Below are positions 61,447 to 62,705 of a DNA stretch of 64,000 nt, one piece after another. The stretch is from Proteinivorax tanatarense. GTDB lineage: Bacteria; Bacillota; Proteinivoracia; Proteinivoracales; Proteinivoracaceae. The notes beneath the pieces were generated by a model. That model made no database searches. It was given only the letters and a program-made list of their open reading frames with translations, and was not told the DNA's origin. Numbering within the stretch: position 1 is the stretch's first letter; every line of letters starts with the position of its first letter. A program made the translations under genes and the position numbers. The DNA lies in NCBI RefSeq assembly GCF_040267685.1, contig NZ_CP158367.1, positions 2,046,001-2,110,000 on the forward strand, in the 5' to 3' direction.

Positions 61447-61581
61447 TTATAAGATTCCCAAGGTTAATAAAACTACTGCTGCTACAGCTGCAAAGATCAC
61501 TAGCTTAAATAGCTTTTTCATAATCCCCAAAACAACTATTCCCAAAGCTAAAAAAATCGCTACTGAAATTAAGATATCCAA
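61447..61581 (-). CDS. Small hydrophobic protein (44 residues, two membrane segments)
   Basis: An ORF from a TTG at 61581, with GGAGGTG six bases upstream. Translation is MDILISVAIFLALGIVVLGI, then MKKLFK, then LVIFAAVAAVVLLTLGIL. Two hydrophobic helices joined by a basic turn suggest a hairpin membrane peptide with the loop inside. No family recognised. It is convergent with the lyase gene and divergent from the leader-yidC pair. Function unknown. A phage-type holin or toxin cannot be excluded. Confidence 0.65.
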   Translation of the reverse strand: MDILISVAIFLALGIVVLGIMKKLFKLVIFAAVAAVVLLTLGIL

Positions 61582-61682
61582 TATGTACACCTCCATGTCC
61601 AAATGCACTTGTTCCACACATTCACCATTATTCTATATTATATCACTTTTATCTTCTTGCAAGTGATTAATTTAATATTTTC

Positions 61683-61711
61683 TGGCAAAAATCATCTACA
61701 TAATATATAAT
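61683..61711 (+). promoter_or_regulatory. Possible promoter of the leader-yidC unit
   Basis: TATAAT at 61706-61711 with a weak -35 TGGCAA at 61683-61688 and 17-bp spacing. The start would be near 61718. Confidence 0.4.
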
Positions 61712-61754
61712 GTTAATAATGAAAAATATATTCGAGTAAAGAGGGAGTGATTAC

Positions 61755-61988
61755 GTGAGTTTTGATATTAATATAGCATGGATTTTTTCCCTTTTTGTTC
61801 TTATGCCATTTTTTAGTTTTACTACTATATTCTTTATAAGTAAGTTGAAAAAGTCTTCTATTGACCACAATTTTGATAACACTAACTTAGTTCCTTTAAT
61901 TAACGTTGACTTATACAAAAAATTAACAGTAGTTAATTATGAAGCTTTTAACAAATATCAAGTGTGGAAATTATACAACCAATATTAA
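61755..61988 (+). CDS. Single-TM leader peptide upstream of a yidC paralogue (candidate MifM-like sensor)
   Basis: A 77-residue protein. GTG start after GAGGGAGTG. One hydrophobic segment at about 7-29 (IAWIFSLFVLMPFFSFTTIFF) is followed by KLKK, predicting N-out/C-in, the topology of YidC-dependent substrates. A soluble tail of about 45 residues ends VWKLYNQY. The stop lies 47 bases before a short yidC gene, whose Shine-Dalgarno site is paired in a hairpin beginning at 61994. In B. subtilis, MifM is a similar small membrane protein whose translation arrest opens such a hairpin when insertion fails. No sequence match to the MifM arrest motif is seen. Role inferred from architecture. Confidence 0.72.
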   Translation: MSFDINIAWIFSLFVLMPFFSFTTIFFISKLKKSSIDHNFDNTNLVPLINVDLYKKLTVVNYEAFNKYQVWKLYNQY

Positions 61989-61993
61989 TTTTA

Positions 61994-62035
61994 GTTAATC
62001 TCTTTCACAAACTAGAATAAAAAGGAGAGATTAAC
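61994..62035 (+). promoter_or_regulatory. Shine-Dalgarno-sequestering hairpin before yidC paralogue
   Basis: GTTAATCTCT (61994-62003) and AGAGATTAAC (62026-62035) pair perfectly over 10 bp, extended by two G-U pairs (62004-62025, 62005-62024). The right arm contains the whole GGAGAG ribosome site (62024-62029) and abuts the TTG start at 62036. The left arm begins six bases after the leader stop, within reach of a ribosome halted at the leader's end. Confidence 0.85.
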
Positions 62036-62590
62036 TTGTCACTTTTTACACATATATTTGATTTATTTTATTCCGTTACCAATGATTATGGTTTAACTAT
62101 TATTGCATATACTTTATTAGTCCGTTTAGCTATGCTTCCCCTTACAATAAAACAGAAAAAATCTATGGGAAAGACAAAAAACTTAGTTAATAAAACTAAA
62201 CTACAGAGTGATAATAAGCAACCTAAGCCGAGTTTAGCACCTCTTTTACTATTTGTACAAGCACCTATATATATAATGATGTTTAGGGTTTTTTCAACAA
62301 ATGTAGTTAGTACTGGGTCATTTCTTTTGCCTTGGATAACAAATTTGTCCTCACCTGATCCATACTATATTTTACCTATTCTTTACATTATAATACAACT
62401 TATGCCCAACTTTTTGGTTTCATTGGATATAATAAAAAATGCCTCTGTACCCAAATTTTCTAAATCAATGATTGTACTACCAGTTATTATGTCAGTGTTA
62501 TTTATTTCAAAACTTCCAGCTTCATTATGTCTTTATATGCTTACAAATAATTTTGCCTCAACATTAGAAAAAATTTTTATCAATGTTTAA
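62036..62590 (+). CDS. Short YidC/OxaA-type membrane insertase paralogue
   Basis: A 184-residue YidC/Oxa1-family protein. The intramembrane Arg of the hydrophilic groove is seen in LLVRLAMLPLTIKQKKSM (about 27-44). Core segments LLLFVQAPIYIMMFRVF, ILPILYIIIQLMPNFLVS and SMIVLPVIMSVLFISKLPASLCLYMLTNN follow. It has no lipoprotein signal, and the cytoplasmic helical hairpin is shortened, so it is smaller than SpoIIIJ-type YidC (about 250 residues). Probably a second, inducible copy. TTG start at 62036, hidden in a hairpin. Controlled by the upstream leader (inference). Confidence 0.85.
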   Translation: MSLFTHIFDLFYSVTNDYGLTIIAYTLLVRLAMLPLTIKQKKSMGKTKNLVNKTKLQSDNKQPKPSLAPLLLFVQAPIYIMMFRVFSTNVVSTGSFLLPWITNLSSPDPYYILPILYIIIQLMPNFLVSLDIIKNASVPKFSKSMIVLPVIMSVLFISKLPASLCLYMLTNNFASTLEKIFINV

Positions 62591-62662: not shown

Positions 62663-62705
62663 AAAATCCTAAGAAAGTTTTTAACTACTTTCTTAGGATT
62701 TTTAT
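62663..62705. terminator. Bidirectional terminator
   Basis: AAAATCCTAAGAAAGT and ACTTTCTTAGGATTTT form a perfect stem between the convergent yidC paralogue and cobO. Confidence 0.93.

What the first reader, a model, noticed from the sequence alone, without database searches (positions are those of the whole stretch)
61755..62590. A MifM-like nascent-chain sensor in front of a short YidC paralogue
A 77-codon ORF with one N-out/C-in membrane segment stops at 61988. Six bases later a 10-bp perfect stem begins (61994-62003 with 62026-62035) that hides the whole ribosome site GGAGAG of a 184-residue YidC paralogue. A ribosome stalled near the leader's stop would cover the left arm and free that site. 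This is the logic of MifM-YidC2 in Bacillus, but the C-terminal tail (VNYEAFNKYQVWKLYNQY) shows no resemblance that I can recognise to known arrest motifs, so it may be a new arrest peptide class that senses membrane-insertion capacity.
Basis: partly seen in the sequence, partly recalled or inferred. Interest (0 to 1): 0.88.

Follow-up and report, generated by a model that had tools for sequence, protein, structure and literature searches.

The report
CliM-type arrest leader controlling yidC2
A short membrane peptide encoded just before a second YidC insertase gene is a divergent relative of CliM, a known peptide that jams its own ribosome when membrane insertion is slow and so turns on more YidC; it is real and interesting, but the class of peptide was already described.

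Summary
A 77-codon GTG-start ORF (61755-61988) with one N-out/C-in segment lies 47 nt before a 184-aa YidC paralogue. A stem (10 perfect pairs, 13 with two G-U and one A-U) runs from just after the leader's stop to the paralogue's ribosome site.

The MifM-like logic is well supported, but the peptide is not a new arrest class. Its tail ...NYEAFNKYQVWKLYNQY* carries the KYx[I/V]W motif of CliM (formerly uC_KYxIW), a published YidC-monitoring arrest peptide with a solved stalled ribosome (9FY1). Spacing from motif to stop matches C. difficile CliM exactly, predicting termination arrest at Tyr77.

An iterative profile started only from C. difficile-family CliMs reaches the leader (E 2.9e-4 at Z=10^6). 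A model lacking it finds it as the only hit in its genome. All CliM-associated YidC2s, this one included, form one clade (98/94).

What is new: CliM outside the class of C. difficile, in two lineages (this one and G766), in a form lacking several tunnel-contact residues, and with a YidC2 lacking most of the cytoplasmic C1 hairpin. The pair is absent from the sister species. Stalling itself is inferred, not measured.

The parts
61682..61711 (+). possible promoter: CTGGCA, 18 nt, TATAAT
   Evidence: consensus scan, 10 of 12, no more sites in the region than shuffles give; weak
61743..61749 (+). Shine-Dalgarno GGGAGTG of the leader
   Evidence: sequence, 5 nt before GTG
61755..61988 (+). cliM homologue: 77-aa leader peptide, GTG start, TAA stop
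   Evidence: iterative profile from C. difficile-family CliMs, E 2.9e-4 at Z=1e6; only hit in own genome with a model lacking it, E 1.2e-4
61776..61838 (+). codons of the transmembrane segment (about residues 8-28), N-out/C-in
   Evidence: hydrophobicity and flanking charges read by eye; aligns with the TM segment of other CliMs
61938..61985 (+). arrest module Y62..F65-N-K67-Y-Q-V-W71-K..Y77, predicted P-site codon 61983-61985 with stop 61986-61988 in the A-site
   Evidence: alignment with PDB 9FY1 chain 5 and 11 other CliMs
61993..62005 (+). left arm of the masking stem
62024..62036 (+). right arm: GGAGAG ribosome site, spacer and first base of the yidC2 start codon
62036..62590 (+). yidC2: 184-aa YidC/Oxa1 paralogue, TTG start, shortened C1 hairpin and C-tail
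   Evidence: PF02096 E 1.2e-18; sits in the CliM-associated YidC2 clade; alignment
62663..62702 (.). probable bidirectional terminator shared with convergent cobO: AAAATCCTAAGAAAGT / ACTTTCTTAGGATTTT
   Evidence: read from the sequence; not listed by the consensus scan

Best explanation
The locus is a cliM-yidC2 operon. The leader is a divergent CliM: its N-terminal segment is inserted N-out/C-in by the YidC pathway. [quoted passage not shown] difficile CliM). The stalled ribosome covers the first bases of the left arm (61993 to about 61999), so the stem that masks the yidC2 ribosome site cannot form and YidC2 is made. When insertion is fast, pulling releases the arrest, the ribosome leaves, the stem closes and yidC2 stays off. 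Shown here: the ORF, the stem, homology to CliM, co-inheritance with YidC2, and recurrence of the leader-to-yidC2 stem in relatives. Inferred: stalling, its site, its release by insertion, and the change of yidC2 translation.
For: KYxVW motif with the same distance to the stop as C. difficile CliM, and identity at Y61, F64, K66, Y67, W70 with conservative I69V, R71K and F76Y. Iterative search from Peptostreptococcaceae CliMs alone picks up the leader at round 3, E 2.9e-4 at Z=1e6, with decoys at E 60 and above; a 14-row model without it gives E 1.2e-4 and no other hit in its genome; with a 16-row model without it, it beats all 20000 whole-sequence shuffles (25.3 against 14.5 bits) and all 20000 with the TM part kept (20.0). 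The recovered leaders outside the C. difficile family (L077, L078, L079, L091, L124, L128) also lie directly before a yidC. CliM-associated YidC2s, the window's included, are one clade, 98/94, in one change of label, with L128 as sister at 97/92. In 11 of 12 distinct loci a modelled stalled ribosome lowers the cost of opening the yidC2 start region (window 11.9 to 6.2 kcal/mol); combined against shuffled spacers p about 1e-11, with relatives not independent. The mechanism is shown for C. kluyveri CliM by reporters, and the arrest for C. kluyveri and C. difficile CliM in vitro.
Against: No stalling data for this peptide. Several residues important in C. difficile CliM (R49, Y52, S53, R56, P58, Q60) are not matched, R71 is Lys, and the penultimate Leu/Tyr that blocks the A-site is Gln76; arrest could be weak or lost. 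With the ribosome modelled, mean SD exposure barely changes (0.24 to 0.21, start codon 0.17 to 0.56), because weak pairings replace the stem. In its sister L128 the hairpin abuts the SD instead of covering it and the model shows no effect. Only one sequence exists from this genus, so selection on the leader cannot be measured.
Confidence: 0.86

Rival explanations
1. A decayed CliM: homologous and still co-transcribed, but no longer arresting strongly; yidC2 is expressed at a low constitutive level, perhaps by translational coupling.
For: Loss of PTC-distal contacts and of a bulky hydrophobic penultimate residue; the YidC2 itself has lost most of the C1 hairpin and the C-tail; the pair is absent from the sister species G001.
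Against: The motif core, TM-to-arrest spacing, exact stop position, and a strong stem on the SD are all kept on a long branch.
Confidence: 0.1
2. A new arrest peptide class, convergent with MifM and unrelated to CliM.
For: Low overall identity to other CliMs (12-24%); a single-sequence search of the PDB does not reach CliM.
Against: Profile homology built without it, shared motif and spacing, and the downstream YidC2 in the CliM-YidC2 clade.
Confidence: 0.02
3. An ordinary small membrane protein followed by yidC2, with the stem acting alone (for example as a plain translational attenuator or a temperature-sensitive stem).
For: No experiment on this peptide; the stem alone could lower yidC2 translation.
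Against: The conserved arrest module at the C-terminus and its fixed distance to both TM segment and stop.
Confidence: 0.02

Closest known systems
CliM (Clostridium insertase monitor; formerly uC_KYxIW), C. difficile and C. kluyveri (PMC13183943, PMC10987492; PDB 9FY1-9FY3)
   Same: About 75-80 aa leader directly before a yidC2, N-out/C-in TM segment, Y..[FY].KYx[IV]W[RK] module, six residues from W to stop as in C. difficile, stem from after the leader stop to the yidC2 start region.
   Different: Lineage outside the class of C. difficile; lacks counterparts of R49, Y52, S53, R56, P58, Q60; R71 is Lys, penultimate residue Gln; stem pairs the SD itself where C. difficile's pairs the start codon and codons 2-6; YidC2 lacks most of the C1 hairpin.
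MifM-YidC2 of Bacillus subtilis
   Same: Logic: YidC-substrate leader, arrest near its C-terminus, stem masking the yidC2 SD.
   Different: MifM arrests at several codons through an acidic DEED cluster, absent here; the published view is that MifM and CliM share no sequence similarity.
ApcA (actinobacterial, upstream of yidC2)
   Same: Arrest leader before a second yidC.
   Different: Uses a C-terminal RAPG motif, absent here.

Membership tests
CliM | Found by jackhmmer-type iteration from C. difficile CliM (five rounds or fewer, E up to 1e-3) | tested here: met
   Round 3, E 2.9e-4 at Z=1e6, started from Peptostreptococcaceae CliMs; E 1.2e-4 in own genome with a model lacking it. Database and start set differ from the paper's.
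CliM | Encoded directly upstream of yidC | tested here: met
   47 nt before a PF02096 gene
CliM | KYxIW motif with arrest-essential K and W | tested here: met
   K67-Y-Q-V-W71; V for I also occurs in other CliMs (L105, L107)
CliM | N-terminal localisation segment, N-out/C-in, about 50 residues from the arrest site | tested here: met
   TM about 8-28, 49 residues to Y77; read by eye, no topology predictor
CliM | Stem-loop masking the yidC2 start region | tested here: met
CliM | Further tunnel-contact residues of C. difficile CliM (R49, Y52, S53, R56, P58, Q60, L75) | tested here: not met
   Not matched in the alignment; L128, L078 and L091 also miss several of them, so they do not define the family
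CliM | Stalls the ribosome; arrest released by membrane insertion | not testable with these tools
   needs toeprinting and reporters
MifM | DEED acidic cluster near the arrest sites | tested here: not met
   No acidic residue in the last 14 residues (motif); no MifM sequence was aligned
RAPP/RQH, ApcA, SecM-type arrest peptides | C-terminal R-A-P-P-like motif | tested here: not met
   No proline in residues 48-77

The most novel reading that the evidence does not exclude
The window leader and L128 are a distinct CliM branch that arrests with only the PTC-proximal half of the module (Y..[FY]NKYx[VI]W), without the Y52/R56/Q60 contacts and, in the window, with Gln as the A-site-blocking penultimate residue, and that in the window controls a YidC2 nearly without its C1 hairpin.
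Probability: 0.35. Interest if true: 0.5.

Novelty: new member of a known kind. Interest (0 to 1): 0.36.

Why it matters
It gives a highly diverged CliM that shows which parts of the arrest module persist, places CliM in two lineages outside the class to which the published homologue search was limited, and ties its history to one clade of YidC2. It offers a natural test of whether the PTC-distal contacts and the hydrophobic penultimate residue are really needed for termination arrest.

Tried and rejected
Single-sequence look-ups of the leader found nothing useful: Pfam, NCBIfam, PDB phmmer (the G1-ATPase subunit D match at E 0.02 is taken as unrelated) and relatives' genomes (chance-level matches). 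A two-row seed profile (A1) found only C. difficile strains and chance matches. YidC loci of relatives not of the CliM type hold no CliM on either strand. Hits around E 0.001-0.01 inside long or broken frames (for example L126, L127, L135, L157) were rejected as chance. Rfam: nothing above gathering score. Mean SD exposure proved a poor measure of release, so opening energy was used as well.

Full report
What is there. The leader ORF (61755-61988, 77 aa, GTG) and the YidC paralogue (62036-62590, 184 aa, TTG) are as described. The genome is 3.09 Mb in one contig and has two YidC genes, this one and a copy near the chromosome end. The leader follows a fumarase/aspartase-family gene with its own terminator-like inverted repeat, and the operon ends in an inverted repeat shared with convergent cobO, so leader and yidC2 look like a two-gene operon; promoter matches in the region (best 61682-61711) are no more frequent than chance. 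The stem is 10 perfect pairs, 13 with two G-U and an outer A-U. An exact 10-bp complement to the start region appears in 29 of 20000 shuffles.

What it is. The literature search led to two papers: the survey that found uC_KYxIW upstream of yidC in Clostridia (PMC10987492) and the study that renamed it CliM, showed that it monitors YidC, and solved the stalled ribosome (PMC13183943). The window's tail reads Y62-E-A-F65-N-K67-Y68-Q-V70-W71-K72-L-Y-N-Q-Y77-stop; C. difficile CliM reads Y61-I-V-F64-Q-K66-Y67-D-I69-W70-R71-Y-C-S-L-F76-stop (PDB 9FY1 chain 5; alignment). The register to the stop is identical. C. [quoted passage not shown]

Tests of homology. From a C. difficile locus I collected CliM leaders in the same family and class. 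A model of 16 of them, without the window, scores the window leader at 25.3 bits; 20000 shuffles reach 14.5, or 20.0 when only the C-terminal part is shuffled. A Peptostreptococcaceae-only model does not separate it from shuffles (9.3 bits), so the intermediates matter. Started from those sequences alone, iteration brings in L077, L079, L124 and L078 in round 1, L091 and L128 in round 2, and the window leader in round 3 at E 2.9e-4 for a database of a million. That database contains the loci I had gathered, some with a seed that included the window, so the route is non-circular in the model but not in the collection. The six-frame search of whole genomes with a 14-row model lacking the window gave it E 1.2e-4 as the only match in its genome, and nothing in its genus, family or class neighbours. 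L078 shares KLTV.NYEAF.KY..W with the window.

Co-inheritance. The recovered leaders outside the C. difficile family lie just before a yidC. In a tree of 53 YidCs the CliM-associated ones, with the window's, are one clade (98/94, one change of label; shuffled labels need 16.6 on average), and the window's YidC2 pairs with L128's (97/92). The other YidC of the same genome lies elsewhere. The species of the same genus (G001) has a single yidC match, and its cobO neighbourhood carries no cliM-yidC2: the pair was gained in this species or lost in that one.

The stem in relatives. In the loci folded, bases at or just after the leader's stop pair with the yidC2 start region: with the SD in the window and L091, with the start codon and first codons in most others. 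Arms differ in sequence between lineages while complementarity is kept. Modelling a ribosome at the last sense codon lowers the cost of opening the start region in 11 of 12 distinct loci; the exception is L128, whose 20-bp hairpin abuts the SD. The window also has a weaker alternative hairpin (left arm about 61988-61997, right arm about 62010-62018, -4.3 kcal/mol) at the place of L128's stem, with a 17-base identical stretch (AATATTAATTTTAGTTA); whether it matters is unknown.

What differs. R49, Y52, S53, R56, P58, Q60 and L75 of C. difficile CliM have no counterpart, and R71 is Lys. The YidC2 lacks about 19 residues of the C1 cytoplasmic hairpin, including KYKND, and the basic C-tail. The window's genome is in the phylum but not the class of C. 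difficile: genome G812, called 'same phylum', carries the identical match to G341 in the C. difficile class. G766 (L128) belongs to yet another class, with 15 genomes held. The published homologue search was confined to GTDB class Clostridia. GTDB releases differ, and NCBI taxonomy may place this organism in Clostridia, so this is an extension of range, not a surprise in kind.

Verdict. The anatomy is right, the mechanism is probably right, and the claim of a new arrest class is wrong: it is a divergent CliM. No arrest has been measured for this peptide.

Noticed in passing
62036-62590 (+): The YidC2 lacks most of the C1 cytoplasmic hairpin (about 19 residues, including the common KYKND turn) and the C-terminal basic tail, unusual for a YidC; it keeps an Arg at the groove position where C. 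difficile YidC2 has Lys and L128 Asn.
   Followed up: partly
61447-61617 (-): Divergent 56-codon ORF (a TTG start after GGAGGTG would give about 43 aa) encoding a very hydrophobic two-segment peptide (...LDILISVAIFLALGIVVLGIMKKLFKLVIFAAVAAVVLLTLGIL); no family match.
   Followed up: no
61988-62018 (+) and L128 1695-1750: Window and L128 share AATATTAATTTTAGTTA at and after the leader stop; in L128 it forms a 20-bp hairpin next to the SD, in the window only a weak alternative to the SD-masking stem.
   Followed up: partly
L013, L019: Two YidCs without a CliM leader branch next to the CliM-YidC2 clade on a long branch (2.09); whether they have another kind of leader was not examined.
   Followed up: no
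L141 (G002:C1:749500-753500): A family relative has its own second YidC without CliM, on a branch with ordinary YidC1 sequences.
   Followed up: no
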